64,000 bases of DNA from Curtobacterium sp. VKM Ac-2865 (lineage in GTDB: Bacteria > Actinomycetota > Actinomycetes > Actinomycetales > Microbacteriaceae), in contig NZ_JADKRZ010000001.1 in the NCBI RefSeq assembly GCF_015350905.1, positions 620,001 through 684,000 of the forward strand. The letters are read 5' to 3'. Below the pieces are notes generated by a model. It saw only the letters and a program-made list of their open reading frames with translations, made no database searches and had not been told where the DNA came from. This document shows, in pieces, positions 28,400 through 50,511 of the stretch (positions within the stretch are counted from its first letter, which is position 1; each line of letters begins with the position of its first letter). The position numbers and the translations under genes are program-made.

Positions 28400-29608
28400 T
28401 CAGTTCGTGGCCATGGTGGGGAGGATCGCCGCATCGTCGTCCTCCTTGCCGGCATGCAGTCGCTGGACGAGGGTGCGGAGGATCGTCGCCGTCACGAGCC
28501 GGTCGGCGATGCCGCGAGCGACGAGACCGGCCCGGGTCCGCGGGTAGGCGAACCGGACGAGCGCCTTCGGAGTGCGCCCGACCCGGTCGGCCAGGGGTCG
28601 CATCCGGCGTTCGTAGGCGACGAGGGCGCTCGTCGGGTCGTCGTTCGCGTCGTCCGTCAGCGCGGCCGCGAGTGTGTAGCCGCCGATGAGCGCGAGGGAG
28701 GCTCCGCCGCCGCCCATCAGGGTCACGCACCAGGCGGCGTCGCCGACGAGGACCACCCGGCCGCGGTGCCACTGGTCCACCCGGATCTGCGTGAGCTGGT
28801 CGAAGTAGAGGTCGTCCGCGTGCTCGAAGGCGTCGAGGACACGCTGCGCCTGCCAGCCGACGTCGGCGTACCGACTCCGGACGCGTGCCAGCGCCTCTTG
28901 ACGGTCGACTCCGAGGAGGTCCTCGCCGGGGGCGTAGGCGAGGATCGCGCGGGTGGTGCCGTGGTTGTCGGGGCGCAGGTGGACCGAGCGCCCGCCGACG
29001 GCGTTGTACCAGCGCCAGGTCTGGTCGTCCGTGTCGGTGCGCGGGATCGTCCCGACCGCCATCGTGATGTCGAGGTCCCGGCGGTGGATGGTCTCCGCGG
29101 GGAAGAGCCGGTCGCGCGTCCTCGACCGGGCGCCCTCGGCGACGACGAGGAACTCCGCGTCGAGGTGTCGTCCCGTGGTGGTGACGACCTCCACCCGGTC
29201 ATCGTGGTGTCGAACTTCGGCGACGGTGTCCCCGTACACGAGCTCGACGTCGGGGACGGCGTCGAGGATGATCTTCGCGAGGTCGCCGCGGAGCACCTCC
29301 AGCTCAGCGGTGGCTCCCTCTGGTCCGTCCGACGGGAGCGTCGCGCGCACCGTGCCGTCGGTGTTCACGACGACCGTCCCGGTCTCGGTGGTGTTGGCCG
29401 CCCGCACTGCGTCCAGGAGTCCCATCCGCTGCAGGACCTCCCGTGCGAGCCCGCGGACGTCGACGTTCTGTCCACCGTCCCGGAACTGCGGGGCACGCTC
29501 GAGGACGGTCACGTGCCATCCAGCGCGGTGCAGCCAGAACGCGGTCGACAAGCCGGCGATGCTCGCCCCCGACACGATCGCGCGACGCTGTTCTCCTGGT
29601 CGTGCCAT
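28400..29608 (-). CDS. FAD-dependent monooxygenase 1 (class A)
   Basis: This 402-residue flavoprotein of the PHBH/Tet(X)-like superfamily has an ADP-binding GASIAG near residue 15, a DG-like motif VVAEGARSRTRDRL and the flavin-binding VVLVGDAAWCVTLMGGGG. It probably hydroxylates an aromatic or polyketide-like molecule with NAD(P)H and O2. ATG 29608 follows GAGCAGGACC; a longer start at 29632 lacks support. It stands divergent to a TetR gene 82 bases away, the first of four such flavoenzymes in 20 kb. Confidence 0.88.
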   Translation of the reverse strand: MARPGEQRRAIVSGASIAGLSTAFWLHRAGWHVTVLERAPQFRDGGQNVDVRGLAREVLQRMGLLDAVRAANTTETGTVVVNTDGTVRATLPSDGPEGATAELEVLRGDLAKIILDAVPDVELVYGDTVAEVRHHDDRVEVVTTTGRHLDAEFLVVAEGARSRTRDRLFPAETIHRRDLDITMAVGTIPRTDTDDQTWRWYNAVGGRSVHLRPDNHGTTRAILAYAPGEDLLGVDRQEALARVRSRYADVGWQAQRVLDAFEHADDLYFDQLTQIRVDQWHRGRVVLVGDAAWCVTLMGGGGASLALIGGYTLAAALTDDANDDPTSALVAYERRMRPLADRVGRTPKALVRFAYPRTRAGLVARGIADRLVTATILRTLVQRLHAGKEDDDAAILPTMATN

Positions 29609-33269: not shown

Positions 33270-34436
33270 TCACATCGCGAGGAGCTGGGCGTTCCGGGCT
33301 GCGATCTCCTCGTCGGTGTCCGGAGAGATCATCGGCAAGCCGAACTCCTCGGTCTCCGACTGGATCTTCTCCGCGGTGGGGCGGAAGCTGCGCTCGTACT
33401 CGGCGAAGGCGGCGAGGACGTCACCGTCGGTCGTGACGAAGGCGTCGTACAGGGCGGTCGCACCGAGGATCGCGACGGACCCGCCCATGCCGGCAGCGGG
33501 TGAGGGGCAGTAGGCGGCATCGCCGACGAGCCCGATCCGGCCCGCCGACCACGCGGGCAGCCGGTTCTGGCTGAGCTTGTCGAAGTAGAAGTTGTCGGCG
33601 TTCAGGGCCTGGTCGAAGACGTCCGAGAACGGCTGTCCGGCGTCGGCGAACACCTCGCGGATGATCTGCTTCTGCGCCTCGACGTCGTGGTGGTCGTAGG
33701 CGATCTCCTCGTCGGACTGGAACATGAACACCACGTCGGTGCTGTGCTCGTACGAGTTCAGCAGCAGCGTGCGGCCGGGTGCGTTCTGGATGCGCGACGT
33801 CCACGGCTGGATGAACATGTCCTGGACGACCGTGACGGACGTGTAGTGGTGCAGGAAGTGGCTGTGGTCCGCTTCCGGACCGAACGAGAGCCGCCGCACG
33901 GTGGAGTGGTTGCCGTCGCAGCCGAGCACCATCGCGAACTCCCGCTCCGGCCCGTGGCGGAACGAGGCACGGACACCGCCGGGCGTCTCGGTGAGTGCGG
34001 TGATCGAGTCGCTGAACGTCACCTCGACGGTGTCCTCGATCTCGGCGAAGAGGATGTCGAGGAGGTCGTCGCGGTGGACCTCGACGTCGTCGAAGCGGTG
34101 GATCTCGTAGTCGTCGATGACGATGCTCGCGTCCGAGCCGCCCGAGGCGTCCGGGTCAGCGGTCACGACGGGGGTGCCGTCGAGGTCAGCGATCACGGTG
34201 GTCCGCGGCGGCAGTGCCTTCGCGCGGACCGCCGGGAGGACGCCCATCCGCTCGAAGATCTCCATCGCGTCGCGCCGGAGGTCGACCGGCGTCCCGCCCC
34301 TGCGGAGCCCCGGCGCCTGCTCCACGATGGTGACCTCGTACCCGAGGCGTCGCATCCAGATCGCTGTCGTCATCCCCGCGAAGCTCGCCCCCGAGATGAG
34401 GACCCGGTCGGGCTGCTGCATGGTTTCCGTGCTCAT
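33270..34436 (-). CDS. FAD-dependent monooxygenase 2 (class A)
   Basis: This 388-residue flavoprotein has GASFAG near residue 16, VLGCDGNHSTVRR for the DG motif and IGLVGDAAYCPSPAAGMG for the flavin ribityl site. Its length matches Tet(X)-type single-component hydroxylases. GGGAGGA lies about 6 bases before ATG 34436. It is transcribed away from a TetR gene across a gap with two near-identical palindromes, so ligand-controlled repression is likely. The substrate is unknown. Confidence 0.88.
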   Translation of the reverse strand: MSTETMQQPDRVLISGASFAGMTTAIWMRRLGYEVTIVEQAPGLRRGGTPVDLRRDAMEIFERMGVLPAVRAKALPPRTTVIADLDGTPVVTADPDASGGSDASIVIDDYEIHRFDDVEVHRDDLLDILFAEIEDTVEVTFSDSITALTETPGGVRASFRHGPEREFAMVLGCDGNHSTVRRLSFGPEADHSHFLHHYTSVTVVQDMFIQPWTSRIQNAPGRTLLLNSYEHSTDVVFMFQSDEEIAYDHHDVEAQKQIIREVFADAGQPFSDVFDQALNADNFYFDKLSQNRLPAWSAGRIGLVGDAAYCPSPAAGMGGSVAILGATALYDAFVTTDGDVLAAFAEYERSFRPTAEKIQSETEEFGLPMISPDTDEEIAARNAQLLAM

Positions 34437-45542: not shown

Positions 45543-46082
45543 TCAGCGGGACGATCCTCCGGGAGTCGCCCGGTCGTAGGCCACGAGGAGTCCTCGGACG
45601 AAGTCCTCGACGACCTGGCGATCTGCCTCCCCCAACGAGTCGATCAGCGACTCGACGCCATCGATCAGCGGCGCGACGTGACCGTACGCACGTTCTGACG
45701 TCTCGTCGGACGCAGTGACGACGAGCTTGCGCCGGTCGGACGGGTGCGGCTCGCGCCGGAGGTGCCCGGCGGCCTCCAGCCGGTTCAGGACCAACGTCAT
45801 CGCGGCCGTCGAGACACCGAGCCGCCGCGCGAGCTCCGTCGGGGTTGTCGGCCCCGTGGTCATCAGGTGGTCCATCGCTTCCAGACCGGTCCGGTCGACA
45901 CCGAGTTCGGTTGCGAGGTACTGCTCGAACCGCTCCTGGCGGATGGAGATCTGCTGCACCTTCGACCGGAGGTCACCGCTTGCAGCGTCGCTGCCGTCGC
46001 GGCGAGCAGCAGTCCGTGCTGCTCGGTCCGCAGGAGTGGGCGGGGTCGGGACCGGTTCCGGCTTGACGTCCATGCCCCCCAT
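45543..46082 (-). CDS. MarR-family regulator (monooxygenase 3)
   Basis: This winged-helix protein of about 179 residues has a disordered N-terminal arm of about 40 residues rich in Pro, Ala and Arg, then the MarR fold: TPTELARRLGVSTAAMTLVL, RLEAAGHLRREPHPSDRRKL with the DxRxx wing. The start is ATG 46082 or ATG 46073; neither has a convincing ribosome site. It stands divergent to flavin monooxygenase 3, with overlapping palindromes between them, and probably represses it until a phenolic ligand binds. Confidence 0.83.
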   Translation of the reverse strand: MGGMDVKPEPVPTPPTPADRAARTAARRDGSDAASGDLRSKVQQISIRQERFEQYLATELGVDRTGLEAMDHLMTTGPTTPTELARRLGVSTAAMTLVLNRLEAAGHLRREPHPSDRRKLVVTASDETSERAYGHVAPLIDGVESLIDSLGEADRQVVEDFVRGLLVAYDRATPGGSSR

Positions 46083-46100
46083 GGTAATACTCAGAGTTGC

Positions 46101-46119
46101 CAATCGGATTGATTATCAA
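46101..46119. promoter_or_regulatory. Candidate MarR operator (two overlapping palindromes)
   Basis: CAATC-G-GATTG (46101-46111) and TTGAT-T-ATCAA (46109-46119) are both perfectly symmetric and overlap by three bases in the AT-rich centre of the 61-base gap between the MarR and monooxygenase genes. The TTGAT/ATCAA form resembles known MarR-family sites. Confidence 0.6.
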
Positions 46120-46143
46120 CAGAACCAGCAGCTGAGGACCACC

Positions 46144-47361
46144 ATGCCCCGCACGAAGACCGCTCTGATCTCCGGGGCCAGCATCGCTGGACCAGCCCTG
46201 GCCTCCTGGCTCGTCTCCTCCGGGTGGCAAGTCACCATCGTCGAGCGCGCCCCGGAACTCCGCACCGGTGGGCAGAACATCGACGTCCGCGGCGCCGGCC
46301 GCACCGTGGCACGCCGCATGGGTGTCGAGGACGCCATCCGTGATGCCACCACCGGAGAGCTCGGCACCGAGTTCGTCCGTTCGGACGGCAGCACCGTCGC
46401 GCGGTTCCCGGCCGGCACCTCCGACACCACCGGGGCGACGGCCGAGCTGGAGATCCTGCGTGGCGACCTCGCCCGCCTCCTCGTCGATGCCGCGGGCGAC
46501 GGCGTCGAGTACGTCTTCGGCGACAGCATCACCGCGATCGACGACCAGCACGACCACGTCCGGGTGTCGTTCGATCATGGAGACGACCGCAGCTTCGACC
46601 TCGTCGTGGTCGCGGACGGCATGAACTCGCGGACGCGGCGACTCGTGTTCGGTACCGCTCCGACCATCCGACCGCTGGGTCTCAACACCTCGTACCTGAC
46701 GATCCCGCGGACCCCTGCGGACAGCGACTGGGCTCGCTGGTTCAACGCCCCCGGCGGACGCACGATGACCCTCCGTCCGGACACCAAGGGCACGATCCGA
46801 GCCACGATGTCGTTCCTCGCGGGACCCGGCGCCCACGACGGCCTCACAGCCGACGAGCAGAAGCGCCTGCTGCGCGAGACGTTCATCGACGCCGGTTGGG
46901 AGGCACGACGCATCCTCGACGGGCTCGAACAGGAGAGGGACCTCTACTTCGAACACATCGGCCAGGTGCAGGCGCCGACCTGGACGTCCGGCCGGGTGGC
47001 ACTCCTCGGCGACGCAGCCTGGTGCGCTTCACCGATCAGCGGCATGGGCACCAGTCTCGCGCTCGTCGGCGCCTACGTCCTCGCCGGCGAGCTCGCCGCG
47101 CACGTCGACCACCGAGACGCCTTCCGGGGCTATGAGCGCATCATGCGGCCCTACGTCACGCAGGCCCAGAAGCTCCCGCCGGGCGCCCCTCGGATCGCCA
47201 ACCCCCGGACCCGCATCGGGATCGCTGCGCTCAACACGGCCGCGAAGGTCGGAGCGAGCCGGGCCTTCAGCGCGATCGGGGGGAAGCTGTTCTCGCCGCC
47301 GGCTGATGCGATCGATCTCCCTGACTACGCACATCTCACCCGGCAGGGCTCCGACCGCTGA
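46144..47361 (+). CDS. FAD-dependent monooxygenase 3 (class A)
   Basis: This 405-residue flavoprotein has GASIAGPALASWLVSSGW at the FAD site, VVVADGMNSRTRR and VALLGDAAWCASPISGMGTS. The close likeness of GGQN(I/V)DVRG and the DG motif to monooxygenase 1 suggests that they are paralogues. TGAGGACC precedes ATG 46144. It converges on monooxygenase 4, with only two bases between the stops. Regulation is probably by the divergent MarR protein. Confidence 0.9.
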   Translation: MPRTKTALISGASIAGPALASWLVSSGWQVTIVERAPELRTGGQNIDVRGAGRTVARRMGVEDAIRDATTGELGTEFVRSDGSTVARFPAGTSDTTGATAELEILRGDLARLLVDAAGDGVEYVFGDSITAIDDQHDHVRVSFDHGDDRSFDLVVVADGMNSRTRRLVFGTAPTIRPLGLNTSYLTIPRTPADSDWARWFNAPGGRTMTLRPDTKGTIRATMSFLAGPGAHDGLTADEQKRLLRETFIDAGWEARRILDGLEQERDLYFEHIGQVQAPTWTSGRVALLGDAAWCASPISGMGTSLALVGAYVLAGELAAHVDHRDAFRGYERIMRPYVTQAQKLPPGAPRIANPRTRIGIAALNTAAKVGASRAFSAIGGKLFSPPADAIDLPDYAHLTRQGSDR

Positions 47362-47363
47362 CG

Positions 47364-48650
47364 TCAAGCCGTCCTGGTGGTCGCCGGCCGGGCGCGACCC
47401 GTCGATGTGTCAGCCCGTCCCTGCTCGTAGCGGGGAAGCGCCCACGCACCCCCTCGATCCGTCGTGGCTCGTGCCGCGATGCGTTCGGGGATGCGGAGGG
47501 CGCAGGCGACGGCGAACGCCGCCTGGAGCGCAGCGACAGCGATCCTCGGTCGCGGGAACCCGAAGGCCAGCAGGCGGGGCTTCACCGCGGCCTGGATCTC
47601 GTCGACGAACGGGCGGAGCGTCGAGTCGTACCGGGCGAGGGCGCCTTCCAGGTCGTCCGGCGTTGCGGTGAGCTCCCCCGCGAGGACGTACGCACCGACC
47701 AGCCCGCCGGAGATGCCCATGCCGCTGTAGGGCGACGCGCAGTGCGCTGCGTCTCCGAGCAGGACGACGCGGCCGTTCGACCAGGTGTCGGTGCGGACCT
47801 GCAGGACCTCCTGCGAGTAGAAGAACGGCGCTTCCGCCATGCCGTCGACGAACCGCTGCGTCTGCCACCCGGCGTCCCGGAACCGGTCGGCCCAGAACCG
47901 CTGCTGGTCCTCGATCGGAGCACGGTGGACCGCGGAGGCCTCGTCCGACGAGTCGCGGAGGATGAAGTACGCCTGCGTCTCGGTCGCGTTGTGGCTGCGC
48001 CGCATGATCTGCCGTCCGCCTGGAGCCGCGTAGGTCTCCCGCACGTCAGTGTCGGAAGCGACACGAGGCACGAACCAGTAGGCCATGTGCAGCCCGGTCC
48101 GCCAGTACACGTCCGTCCCCTCGGGCAGGATGTCGCGGCGGATCCGGGATCCCTGACCGTCTGCGCCGACGAGCAGGTCGAACGTCTCGTCCGAGCCGTC
48201 GGAGAAGTGCGCGACGACCTCGTCCTGCGTCTGGTCGAACCCCTCGACGGTCAGCCCGAAGCGGTACTCGACGTCCTCCTTCGTGGCGTCGTGGAGGATG
48301 CGCACGAGGTCACCGCGCATGATCTCGAACTCCGAGGTGAGCGTCTGCTTCCCCTGACCGGAGGTGTTGGCCATGATCGCGCCGAGCCGTCGTCCCGATC
48401 CGTTCACGAACGCGACACCGGGCTCGGCGACGAGGTGCGCCCGGACCTCGTCCAACAGGCCCATCGCCGTGATCGCCTCGATGCCCTGCCCGCGCAGGTC
48501 GACCTGCGCCCCCGTGGCCCGCAGCGCCGGGTACCGCTCCGCCACCGTGACCCGATGACCAGCTCGCGCCAGCCAGAAGGCCAGCGCAGGACCGGCGACT
48601 CCCCCGCCGGCGACGAGCACCTTCAGCGACTTCTTCTGCTTCGTGACCAT
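47364..48650 (-). CDS. FAD-dependent monooxygenase 4, Tet(X)-like, under tetO control
   Basis: This 428-residue class A flavin monooxygenase has VAGGGVAGPALAFWLARAG (GxGxxG, residues 13-31), LLVGADGQGSRIRR and VVLLGDAAHCASPYSGMGIS. Its layout matches tetracycline-inactivating flavin hydroxylases of the Tet(X)/Tet(50) kind and also other actinobacterial hydroxylases, so the substrate is open. What makes tetracycline plausible is the regulation: the promoter region contains two tet-operator cores and the divergent gene codes for a TetR of the tetracycline-responsive type. CGGGAG lies 8 bases before ATG 48650. TTGACA and CACACT at 18-base spacing form the likely promoter on the minus strand. Confidence 0.87.
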   Translation of the reverse strand: MVTKQKKSLKVLVAGGGVAGPALAFWLARAGHRVTVAERYPALRATGAQVDLRGQGIEAITAMGLLDEVRAHLVAEPGVAFVNGSGRRLGAIMANTSGQGKQTLTSEFEIMRGDLVRILHDATKEDVEYRFGLTVEGFDQTQDEVVAHFSDGSDETFDLLVGADGQGSRIRRDILPEGTDVYWRTGLHMAYWFVPRVASDTDVRETYAAPGGRQIMRRSHNATETQAYFILRDSSDEASAVHRAPIEDQQRFWADRFRDAGWQTQRFVDGMAEAPFFYSQEVLQVRTDTWSNGRVVLLGDAAHCASPYSGMGISGGLVGAYVLAGELTATPDDLEGALARYDSTLRPFVDEIQAAVKPRLLAFGFPRPRIAVAALQAAFAVACALRIPERIAARATTDRGGAWALPRYEQGRADTSTGRARPATTRTA

Positions 48651-48668
48651 GGTGCGTCTCCCGCTTCC

Positions 48669-48681
48669 CTATCAGTGATAG
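48669..48681. promoter_or_regulatory. tetO-like operator 1 (CTATCAGTGATAG)
   Basis: The 13-bp core is identical to that of the Tn10 tetO2 operator (TCCCTATCAGTGATAGAGA); the longer stretch TCCCTATCAGTGATAG is shared. It lies 19 bases upstream of monooxygenase 4, downstream of its likely -10. It is the first of two operators 26 bp apart. Confidence 0.9.
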
Positions 48682-48694
48682 TGGGAGTGTGCGC

Positions 48695-48707
48695 CTATCA
48701 GCGATAG
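48695..48707. promoter_or_regulatory. tetO-like operator 2 (CTATCAGCGATAG)
   Basis: One base (the central T to C) differs from operator 1. It overlaps the TAGTCT -10 (48705-48710) of the tetR gene and lies in the spacer of the monooxygenase promoter, so one bound repressor would silence both genes, as in Tn10. Confidence 0.88.
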
Positions 48708-48717
48708 TCTGTCAAGC

Positions 48718-49296
48718 ATGGCGAAGATCGATCGGGCTGTCGCAGTCCAGGAAGCACTGGCGTTGCTCGACGAAGTCGGTCTCGACGGGGTGAGCACCCG
48801 GGCGGTGGCGCGGCGGCTCGGCGTGGAGCAACCGTCCCTGTACTGGCACTTCAAGAACAAGCAGGAGCTGTTGGCGGCGATGGCCGCGGCCGTGCTCGAG
48901 CGGCAGGATGCGCTCCCGTTGCCGCAGCCGGGCGACGACTGGAGGTCATGGTTCCTCGAGAACTACCGGAGCTTCCGCAGCGCCCTCCTGGCGCATCGCG
49001 ACGGAGCGCGCCTCCACGCCGGGTCCGTCCCTGACGGCGCTTCCCGGGAACGGCTCCTGCAGAAGTTCGCGTTCCTGGTCGACGCCGGTGTCGCCCAGCA
49101 GAACGCGATCGCGGGGATGCTCGCGGCGAGCCGGTTCACCGTCGGCAGCGCCCTCGAGCAGCAGGCCGATCCGGACGCAGACGAACCAGCGGCTCCAGCA
49201 GCAGCCGGACAGCTCACCGTCCCCACACACGACCAGGCCTTCGAGGCGGGCCTGCTGATGCTACTCACCGGCCTCGAAGCTGCCAGCGCGACTTGA
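48718..49296 (+). CDS. TetR regulator of the tetracycline-responsive type
   Basis: This 192-residue protein aligns with Tn10 TetR over its length. The recognition region LGVEQPSLYWHFKNKQELL is almost that of TetR (LGVEQPTLYWHVKNKRALL). As I recall the TetR numbering, contact residues Asn82, Phe86, His100 (the Mg ligand, in HRDGARLH), Pro105 and Glu147 are all kept at the same positions; His64 is Asp64, Thr103 is Ser103 and Arg104 is Val104. It should therefore bind tetO-like DNA and a Mg-chelated polyketide, perhaps with shifted specificity. TAGTCT lies 7 bases before the ATG (leaderless). Confidence 0.9.
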   Translation: MAKIDRAVAVQEALALLDEVGLDGVSTRAVARRLGVEQPSLYWHFKNKQELLAAMAAAVLERQDALPLPQPGDDWRSWFLENYRSFRSALLAHRDGARLHAGSVPDGASRERLLQKFAFLVDAGVAQQNAIAGMLAASRFTVGSALEQQADPDADEPAAPAAAGQLTVPTHDQAFEAGLLMLLTGLEAASAT

Positions 49297-49304
49297 CTGC
49301 CCCG

Positions 49305-49730
49305 TCACCCCTCCGCTGCGTCGCCGTCGAACGACTGCCGGTTGACGGCGATCGTCTGCTGGTGCTCCTGCACCCAGTCGGCGAGGGCGAGCGCCACGTG
49401 CTGCAGTGACCGCCCGAGATCGGTGAGCTCGTACTCGACCCGGGGTGGCACCTGGGCGTGCACGGTCCGCGACACGAGCCCGTCGCGCTCGAGCGCGCGC
49501 AGGGTCACGGTCAGCATCCGTCGGGAGATGCCCGGGATCACCTCGGAGAGCTCGGTGAACCGCCGCCGATCGTCGCCGAGCACGCCGATCACCAGGAGCG
49601 TCCACTTGTCGCCCATGCGCGACAGCAGCGACCGGAAGAGCTCCGGGTCCTCGCTCGTGCACAGCTCAGCCATCGTGGGCATGGTCTCGTCGAGCCTGGC
49701 CTGCAACGACTTCAGCGCCGTCTGCTCCAT
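49305..49730 (-). CDS. HxlR-family regulator
   Basis: This 141-residue winged-helix protein has the HxlR pattern LLSRMGDKWTLLVIGVLGDD, RRFTELSEVIPGISRRMLTV and LERDGLVSRTVHAQVPPRVE. It lacks the usual N-terminal Cys of disulfide-sensing members except Cys24 (AELCTSED), which may be a redox or electrophile sensor. GGGAGGGAA lies about 5 bases before ATG 49730. It stands divergent to the azoreductase-like gene with two palindromic sites in the gap, the arrangement known for quinone- and diamide-sensing HxlR proteins such as YodB. Confidence 0.88.
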   Translation of the reverse strand: MEQTALKSLQARLDETMPTMAELCTSEDPELFRSLLSRMGDKWTLLVIGVLGDDRRRFTELSEVIPGISRRMLTVTLRALERDGLVSRTVHAQVPPRVEYELTDLGRSLQHVALALADWVQEHQQTIAVNRQSFDGDAAEG

Positions 49731-49746
49731 CGAGTTCCCTCCCGTC

Positions 49747-49762
49747 GTTACCGCCGGGTAAC
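49747..49762. promoter_or_regulatory. HxlR operator copy A (GTTACC-N4-GGTAAC)
   Basis: A perfect 6+6 bp inverted repeat lies 16 bases upstream of the HxlR gene. A single half site, GGTAAC, recurs at 49777-49782. YodB-like proteins bind symmetric sites containing TAC and GTA half sites, which this resembles. Confidence 0.65.
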
Positions 49763-49800
49763 AGGGGGTCGTTTGCGGTAACGCGAGCCCGGCGGGCAGG

Positions 49801-49815
49801 GTTACTGATCGTAAC
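49801..49815. promoter_or_regulatory. HxlR operator copy B (GTTAC-N5-GTAAC)
   Basis: A perfect 5+5 bp inverted repeat lies 42 bases before the azoreductase-like gene, shares the GTTAC arm with copy A and lies about 54 bp from it centre to centre. It probably overlaps the promoter of the enzyme gene (AACTGTAG at 49812-49819). Confidence 0.6.
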
Positions 49816-49857
49816 TGTAGCCGGGGTCGCCGACCCGGGCACGATCGAAGGACTGTC

Positions 49858-50511
49858 ATGACCCTGTTCCGTCTGGACGCCAGCATCCGCACCGACGGCT
49901 CCACCAGCCGAGCCCTCGGCGACATCGTCGAGGCCGAGTGGAGCGCCGTGCACGCGGGCTCCACCGTGACCCGCCGTCACGTCGGCGCTGAGCCCCTGCC
50001 CGCCGATGCCTGGGCGAACGCCGTCGGCGCGTCCATGACGCCCGAGGCCGAGCGCACGCCGGCCCAGGTCGCCGCGGTCACCCTCGCGAGGCAGCTGACC
50101 GACGAGCTCGCCGGAGCCGACGCACTGCTGTTCGCCGTGCCGCTCTACAACTTCGGCGTCTCGCAGCACTTCAAGTCCTACGTCGACCTGGTGCTGACCG
50201 ATCCGCGCATGGCACCCGGCGCGGTCCCGGTCACCGTGGGCAAGCCCGCCGTCCTGGTCACGGTGCAGGGCGGCAACTACTCCGCCGGCACGCCCCGGGA
50301 GGGCTGGGACCACGCCACGGCCTGGATGCGGCGCATCCTCGAGGACGTCTGGCAGCTCGACCTCGACGTGGTGACGCGCGAGTTCACGCTCGTCGGGGTG
50401 AACCCCGCCCTCGACCAGTTCACGGAGCTGGCCGACGAGTTGCGGGTCCGTGCCGAGGAGGAGGCGGCCCGGCACGGCCGCACGTTGGCGGCCCTGCCGA
50501 AGGCCGCCTGA
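49858..50511 (+). CDS. FMN-dependent azoreductase/quinone reductase-like protein
   Basis: This 217-residue flavodoxin-fold (Flavodoxin_2) protein has LFRLDASIRTDGSTSRALGD for the phosphate loop and PLYNFGVSQHFKSYVDLVLT, the hallmark motif of AzoR-type FMN enzymes. They reduce quinones and azo compounds by two-electron transfer, protecting thiols. GAAGGA lies 6 bases before ATG 49858. Together with the HxlR regulator it mirrors the Bacillus YodB/AzoR1 detoxification pair. A palindromic repeat follows. Confidence 0.9.
   Translation: MTLFRLDASIRTDGSTSRALGDIVEAEWSAVHAGSTVTRRHVGAEPLPADAWANAVGASMTPEAERTPAQVAAVTLARQLTDELAGADALLFAVPLYNFGVSQHFKSYVDLVLTDPRMAPGAVPVTVGKPAVLVTVQGGNYSAGTPREGWDHATAWMRRILEDVWQLDLDVVTREFTLVGVNPALDQFTELADELRVRAEEEAARHGRTLAALPKAA

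What the first reader, a model, noticed from the sequence alone, without database searches (positions are those of the whole stretch)
47364..49296. Tet(X)-like flavin monooxygenase under a genuine-looking TetR/tetO switch
Two operators, CTATCAGTGATAG and CTATCAGCGATAG, lie between a TetR and a divergent flavin monooxygenase; the first is identical to the core of Tn10 tetO2. The TetR keeps Asn82, Phe86, His100, Pro105 and Glu147 at Tn10 positions (numbering from memory) but has Asp64 for His64. Known Tn10 modules pair TetR with the TetA pump; here the output is an oxidative enzyme. This could be an environmental tetracycline-destroying module or a switch for another Mg-chelating polyketide.
Basis: partly seen in the sequence, partly recalled or inferred. 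Interest (0 to 1): 0.82.

Follow-up and report, generated by a model that had tools for sequence, protein, structure and literature searches.

The report
Tetracycline-type switch driving a flavoenzyme
In a bacterium that is probably a Curtobacterium, a relative of the tetracycline-sensing TetR repressor and two matching DNA operator sites lie beside, and likely control, a flavin enzyme predicted to disarm tetracycline-like compounds; the same two-gene cassette recurs in Streptomyces and other actinobacteria, in genomes and on plasmids.

Summary
Two tetO-like operators (48669-48681, 48695-48707) separate a Tn10-type TetR from a divergent class A flavin monooxygenase (FMO); no other site within one mismatch is in the genome. 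The layout is under selection: 26 of 26 orthologous intergenic regions carry two sites, 25 of 26 carry TTGACA beside the proximal one. Repressor residue 40 tracks operator base 6 (Ser-CTATC in 25 of 25 relatives; Ala with Gln38-TTATC in 7 of 8). Asn82, Phe86, His100, Pro105 and Glu147 are all kept in 27 of 27 orthologs and in 0 of 72 distant TetRs; His64, Gln116 and His139 are changed in all 27. The FMO fold matches type 2 tetracycline destructases best, but its clade is separate and it scores 199 of the 550 bits that family requires.

This is an ortholog of a known module: the PDB relative is SCO0253, which I recall controls a natural tetracycline-inducible promoter in S. coelicolor (paper not held; only its title seen). 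Added here are the FMO output, its spread on genomes and plasmids, and the altered ring-A side of the pocket. DNA control is close to certain, a tetracycline-like inducer likely, destruction of the inducer inferred. No experiment was run.

The parts
47364..48650 (-). Class A flavin-dependent monooxygenase (428 aa), predicted output gene
   Evidence: PF01494 88.9 bits; best solved relatives are tetracycline destructases Tet(56), Tet(51), Tet(55), Tet(50); 20 orthologs form one clade 100/100
48657..48662 (-). Predicted ribosome-binding site (GGGAGA on the minus strand) of the monooxygenase
   Evidence: sequence; spacing 6 nt to ATG; inference
48669..48681 (.). Distal operator CTATCAGTGATAG, identical to the core of Tn10 tetO2 (identity to tetO2 recalled)
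   Evidence: a site with at most 2 mismatches of 10 in the equivalent place in 26 of 26 orthologous regions
48695..48707 (.). Proximal operator CTATCAGCGATAG
   Evidence: a perfect CTATCnnnGATAG at this place in 26 of 26 orthologous regions
48710..48715 (-). TTGACA, predicted -35 element of the monooxygenase promoter, 2 nt from the proximal operator
   Evidence: kept in 25 of 26 orthologous regions and at the same distance in 2 of 6 control loci, those of TetR(C) and TetR(Y); the consensus promoter scan finds no full promoter here
48718..49296 (+). TetR-type repressor (192 aa), ortholog of S. coelicolor SCO0253 (PDB 3fiw)

Best explanation
Two tetO-like operators lie between a Tn10-type TetR gene and a divergent class A flavin monooxygenase gene, and the TetR dimer is predicted to sit on both and shut off both genes until a Mg-chelated tetracycline-like compound would pull it off, after which the monooxygenase would likely oxidise that compound. 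Shown here: the genes, the operator pair, their conservation in 26 orthologous regions, the residue-40/base-6 covariation, and the kept metal-side pocket. Inferred: that the inducer is a tetracycline or an aromatic polyketide with the same metal-binding keto-enol but an altered ring A (His64, Gln116 and His139 are all replaced), and that the enzyme acts on the inducer. Untested: binding, release and catalysis.
Confidence: 0.6

Rival explanations
1. The switch is the same, but the natural inducer and substrate are another Mg-binding aromatic polyketide (for example an anthraquinone- or angucycline-type compound); tetracyclines would be at most accidental inducers and poor substrates.
For: The ring-A contacts His64 and Gln116, and also His139, are replaced by Ala/Asp/Ser/Glu, Lys and Arg while the metal side is kept in 27 of 27. 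FMO clade separate from Tet(51/55/56). Related TetRs with the same metal-side residues sit next to other class A FMOs: L144 beside an enzyme whose best solved relatives are polyketide hydroxylases GrhO5, RubL and RdmE, L095 beside a 561-aa rifampin-monooxygenase-like enzyme below that model's cut-off.
Against: The recalled tetracycline induction of the SCO0253 promoter; the best solved structures of the FMO are tetracycline destructases.
Confidence: 0.27
2. The FMO is an ordinary catabolic or housekeeping hydroxylase of the large PRK07588-type family that happens to be under a tetracycline-type repressor; it does not act on the inducer.
For: The genome has 7 related FMOs including this one, four of them inside this window; the best NCBIfam score is to PRK07588, whose description names no function.
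Against: The ortholog clade is tight (100/100) and keeps the TetR partner in 19 of 20 genome loci and 16 of 16 plasmids; no other neighbour is common to the seven plasmid loci whose annotation was read.
Confidence: 0.1
3. Chance: tetR was placed beside an unrelated FMO by recombination and the palindromes are coincidental.
For: None found.
Against: 26 of 26 regions keep two sites against 4 of 5200 shuffles; residue-base covariation.
Confidence: 0.01

Closest known systems
SCO0253 (PDB 3fiw) of Streptomyces coelicolor and its divergent gene, the natural tetracycline-inducible promoter of Rodriguez-Garcia et al. 2005 (function recalled; title only seen)
   Same: TetR ortholog, 56% identity over 178 columns, same clade; TetRs 92-97% identical to SCO0253 in L136, L140 and L149 stand beside FMO orthologs and two tetO-like sites
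   Different: Distal operator perfect here, degenerate (CTATCGGTGAATG type) in most of the Streptomyces read; Asp64 here against Ala64; S. coelicolor's own locus was not viewed
Tn10-type tetR/tetA modules (TetR classes A, B, C, Y)
   Same: Tandem operators between divergent genes, TTGACA beside the proximal operator in TetR(C) and TetR(Y), recognition head but for residue 40, metal-side pocket residues
   Different: Output is an FMO, not a TetA pump; His64, Thr103, Gln116, His139 changed; C-terminal part shorter, no alpha 9-like helix in the model
Type 2 tetracycline destructases Tet(50), Tet(51), Tet(55), Tet(56)
   Same: Fold over residues 5-409, about 33% identity
   Different: Separate clade; far below the NCBIfam cut-off. 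That they are not reported under a tetO switch is recalled; one review, searched by term, holds no 'operator' and no 'TetR family'
Tet(X) (type 1)
   Same: Class A FMO fold

Membership tests
Tetracycline repressor TetR (NCBIfam NF010319 equivalog) | Score over the curated cut-off of 265 bits | tested here: not met
   201.6 bits
Tetracycline repressor TetR (NCBIfam NF010319 equivalog) | DNA-reading head and tandem tetO | tested here: met
   Thr27 Arg28 Glu37 Gln38 Pro39 Tyr42 Trp43 His44 Lys48 kept, Thr40Ser; two operators. In Streptomyces orthologs Trp43 or His44 is often Tyr (18 of 27 rows, SCO0253 among them)
Tetracycline repressor TetR (NCBIfam NF010319 equivalog) | Tetracycline-binding residues His64, Asn82, Phe86, His100, Thr103, Arg104, Gln116, Glu147 (list from PMC8326586) | tested here: inconclusive
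   Window keeps Asn82, Phe86, His100, Glu147; lacks His64 (Asp), Thr103 (Ser), Arg104 (Val), Gln116 (Lys)
Tetracycline repressor TetR (NCBIfam NF010319 equivalog) | Release from the operator by tetracycline-Mg | not testable with these tools
   needs a gel shift or reporter
tetR/tetA resistance module | Divergent TetA-type efflux pump | tested here: not met
   The divergent gene is an FMO; no match over the tet_MFS_A_B_C_D cut-off in the genome
Tetracycline destructases (NCBIfam NF033476) | Score over the curated cut-off of 550 bits | tested here: not met
   199.4 bits
Tetracycline destructases (NCBIfam NF033476) | Clusters with Tet(51), Tet(55), Tet(56) | tested here: not met
   Tree of 47 rows: Tets with 19 other paralogs on one side of a 99/98 branch, FMO orthologs apart 100/100; long branches and unlike letter make-up of the Tet rows were warned of
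Tetracycline destructases (NCBIfam NF033476) | Destructase-type fold | tested here: met
Tetracycline destructases (NCBIfam NF033476) | Oxidation of tetracyclines | not testable with these tools
   enzyme assay needed
SCO0253-type module | TetR in the SCO0253 clade, two tetO-like sites, divergent FMO of the same ortholog group | tested here: met
   TetR group 99/98, with L095 also inside; FMO clade; TetRs 92-97% identical to SCO0253 have the same partner
SCO0253-type module | Tetracycline-inducible promoter | not testable with these tools
   known for S. coelicolor by recall only; paper not held

The most novel reading that the evidence does not exclude
A mobile actinobacterial resistance cassette: a natural Tn10-type TetR/tetO switch, its pocket naturally retuned on the ring-A side in the direction of the engineered 4-ddma-atc repressor (His64 lost and Leu135 in 27 of 27), drives an independent third lineage of tetracycline-destroying flavoenzymes aimed at tetracyclines with an unusual ring A.
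Probability: 0.3. Interest if true: 0.8.

Novelty: new member of a known kind. Interest (0 to 1): 0.52.

Why it matters
Tetracycline destructases are usually found without a dedicated tetracycline sensor (recalled). Here a genuine tetO switch, conserved across Microbacteriaceae, Streptomyces, Actinomadura, Nonomuraea and Embleya and present on 16 plasmid records, points to an enzyme lineage whose natural substrate can be found by asking what releases the repressor. It also gives a natural series in which repressor residues and operator bases change together, and a wild counterpart of laboratory-changed TetR pockets. If the enzyme does destroy tetracyclines, it is an environmental resistance reservoir that the present destructase model leaves below its cut-off.

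Tried and rejected
Chance palindromes: rejected. Direct membership in the destructase family: rejected on score and tree. A shared larger operon: in the seven plasmid loci whose annotation was read no neighbour is common to all; an SRPBCC, ABC-transporter and two-component set follows the TetR only in L140 and L149, whose TetRs are 92-94% identical to SCO0253. The neighbouring MarR/FMO2 pair (45546-47361) as part of the module: rejected, no second FMO shows in the 10.6 kb of L011, L012 or L013. Consensus sigma-70 promoter: none found, so the promoter claim rests on conservation alone; of six control loci only TetR(C) and TetR(Y) show TTGACA there. SCO0253 ranks first by Foldseek (TM 0.73) but is not among the 50 entries shown by VIA-align. 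Literature on SCO0253 and SCO0252 by name: 0 papers each. Searches for a TetR-regulated destructase in print; none of the listed titles tells of this module; the library lacks most subscription papers. PMC3511530, PMC5988894 and PMC10327574 were searched by term only; PMC7725328, PMC8326586, PMC2949611, PMC8724576, PMC7460540 and PMC10827964 were seen as passages (PMC2949611 also as outline). 4-ddma-atc: 0 papers; its link to H64K/S135L/S138I is from the PDB title 3fk7. TetR(A) and TetR(C) have Met135, so Leu135 alone is weak evidence. Glu147 alone does not set the orthologs apart (71 of 72 distant TetRs keep it). Viral and metagenome contigs, E. coli genomes and the phage collection were not searched.

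Counts and dropped rows: one search used 19 loci having both genes; L105 (FMO ortholog, no TetR) was left out there and is counted as the one exception of 20. L004, L010, L098, L102 are one locus, as are L011/L099, L012/L100, L013/L101; each counted once. Of 16 plasmid records 8 were fetched (the Embleya one bears no gene table) and 7 entered the 26-region counts; adjacency in all 16 is from the coordinates. The TetR tree took 15 of the 72 distant TetRs. One search's table has 106 rows, the window not among them: 8 show no symmetric half-site by its pattern (among them L095 with Gln38/Ala40 and 3 with Ala38) and one (L144) shows two kinds. In three plasmid records (CP014514, CP107961, Embleya CP108785) the FMO stretch bears no annotated gene and in CP107961 the match covers 62% of the query; not examined further. 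Family names were looked up for only four of the FMOs beside the more distant TetRs and for L095's.

Full report
Observation. The window lies in a 3.73-Mb genome whose closest named relatives at this locus are Curtobacterium (FMO 97% identical to Curtobacterium sp. VKM Ac-1395; 97% to Curtobacterium sp. SL109 in the protein listing). At 48669-48681 stands CTATCAGTGATAG and at 48695-48707 CTATCAGCGATAG. Allowing one mismatch, 0.02 matches are expected in the window and the whole genome contains these two sites alone. The pair separates a TetR gene (48718-49296, +) from a divergent FMO gene (47364-48650, -).

Conservation of the switch. Orthologous pairs were gathered from Curtobacterium, Frondihabitans, two further genomes of the same family, Actinomadura, Nonomuraea, ten Streptomyces genomes and plasmids. 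Of 20 genome loci with an FMO ortholog, 19 have the TetR divergent beside it; L105 of Nonomuraea guangzhouensis has no TetR in its 4.2 kb and only a site with two mismatches, TTATCGCTGACAG, upstream of the FMO. All 16 plasmid records with an FMO match at 60% identity or more have the TetR next to it on the other strand (coordinates). In 26 examined intergenic regions there are at least two sites with at most two mismatches in 26 of 26; the proximal one is a perfect CTATCnnnGATAG in 26 of 26; centre spacing runs from 26 to 36; only 4 of 5200 dinucleotide shuffles have two sites. The distal site is degenerate in most of the Streptomyces read. TTGACA lies 2-3 nt from the proximal operator on the FMO strand in 25 of 26 regions; among six control loci it lies at 2 nt in those of TetR(C) and TetR(Y) and is missing in the other four. 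So the promoter layout is shared with some TetA modules, although a consensus scan finds no full promoter.

Reading of DNA. At the ten DNA-contact positions examined the recognition head equals that of Tn10 TetR except Thr40Ser; in 18 of 27 orthologs, SCO0253 among them, Trp43 or His44 is Tyr. Ser40 goes with CTATC in 25 of 25 relatives; Gln38 with Ala40 goes with TTATC in 7 of 8 [TetR(C), TetR(Y) and relatives; the eighth, L095, has no symmetric site]; Ala38 goes with TTAAC in 65 of 68; L144 shows both CTATC and TTATC; 8 of the 106 rows show no symmetric half-site of the pattern. I recall a laboratory result that a Thr40-to-Ala change in TetR moves the preference at operator base pair 6 from G-C to A-T; the natural series agrees with it. 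This makes binding of this TetR to these operators close to certain, though not shown by experiment.

What it is. It belongs with the module of SCO0253 in S. coelicolor. The PDB title of 3fiw names SCO0253, and TetRs 97, 94 and 92% identical to it in L136, L140 and L149 stand next to FMO orthologs with the same kind of operators. I recall from the abstract of Rodriguez-Garcia et al. 2005 (Nucleic Acids Res. 33:e87) that S. coelicolor has an innate tetracycline-controllable promoter regulated by SCO0253; the text is not held and I saw only the title in reference lists. If recalled rightly, tetracycline response of this ortholog group is already shown, and the present locus is a new member of a known kind. 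What I add is the FMO output with its phylogenetic place, the operator covariation, the altered ring-A pocket, and the spread.

Spread. The cassette is rare and patchy: the TetR in 7 of 249 genomes of the family at E 1e-30 (four same-genus genomes listed without it), the FMO ortholog in 2 of 394 class genomes including the own one and in 10 of 246 Streptomyces genomes. It sits on plasmids, those of Streptomyces that were read being linear, and on a Frondihabitans plasmid beside two recombinase genes. Patchy spread with close conservation fits a horizontally moving resistance-like cassette; that is inference.

Mechanism and limits. The likely cycle is repression of both genes, inducer-Mg binding, release, enzyme synthesis and oxidation of the inducer. 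DNA control I hold at about 0.95, a tetracycline-like inducer at about 0.75, action of the FMO on the inducer at about 0.65. The main rival is a non-tetracycline Mg-binding polyketide. No binding, induction or enzyme result was obtained here.

Noticed in passing
window 45546-47361: A second, separate module: MarR-type regulator (45546-46103, -) divergent from another class A FMO (46144-47361, +) that scores higher for tet_destruct than the finding's FMO (233 of 550 bits); a relative of about 64% identity is in G639 (L115).
   Followed up: partly
window 28490-29587 (-) and 33285-34409 (-): Two more class A FMOs; four of the genome's seven FMOs of this kind found at E 1e-15 (this one included) lie within the 64-kb window.
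   Followed up: partly
L018-L089, upstream of the TetR: A large family of mostly actinobacterial TetRs with paired TTAACnnnGTTAA operators in place of tetO (65 of 72); 55 of 72 loci show a weakly matching FMO frame on the other strand. Of two of these FMOs looked up, both in L036 and L082, PRK06184 scores over the cut-off; a third (L054) is PRK06834/rifampin-monooxygenase-like below it. The five tetracycline pocket residues are never all present.
   Followed up: partly
L144 (Burkholderia arboris plasmid pla_2): TetR 55.7% identical over residues 1-149, with His64 kept, divergent from an FMO whose best solved relatives are GrhO5, RubL and RdmE; one CTATC and one TTATC operator.
   Followed up: partly
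L095 (G097): TetR 56% identical with metal-side residues kept but beside a different, 561-aa rifampin-monooxygenase-like FMO; no symmetric operator by the pattern used.
   Followed up: partly
L097 (G621): An actinobacterial TetR/TetA pair: pump over the NCBIfam TetA/B/C cut-off, TetR with His64 and Gln116, TTATC operator.
   Followed up: partly
L105, 1481-1493: An FMO ortholog without a nearby TetR whose only operator-like site is damaged, as if the repressor had been lost.
   Followed up: no
PDB 8twg and 8twf: Their molecule name reads 6-hydroxynicotinate 3-monooxygenase, while the entry titles call them tetracycline destructases Tet(56-2) and Tet(56-3).
   Followed up: no
window 49305-50511: HxlR-type regulator divergent from a flavodoxin-fold NAD(P)H oxidoreductase, directly after the TetR gene.
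   Followed up: no
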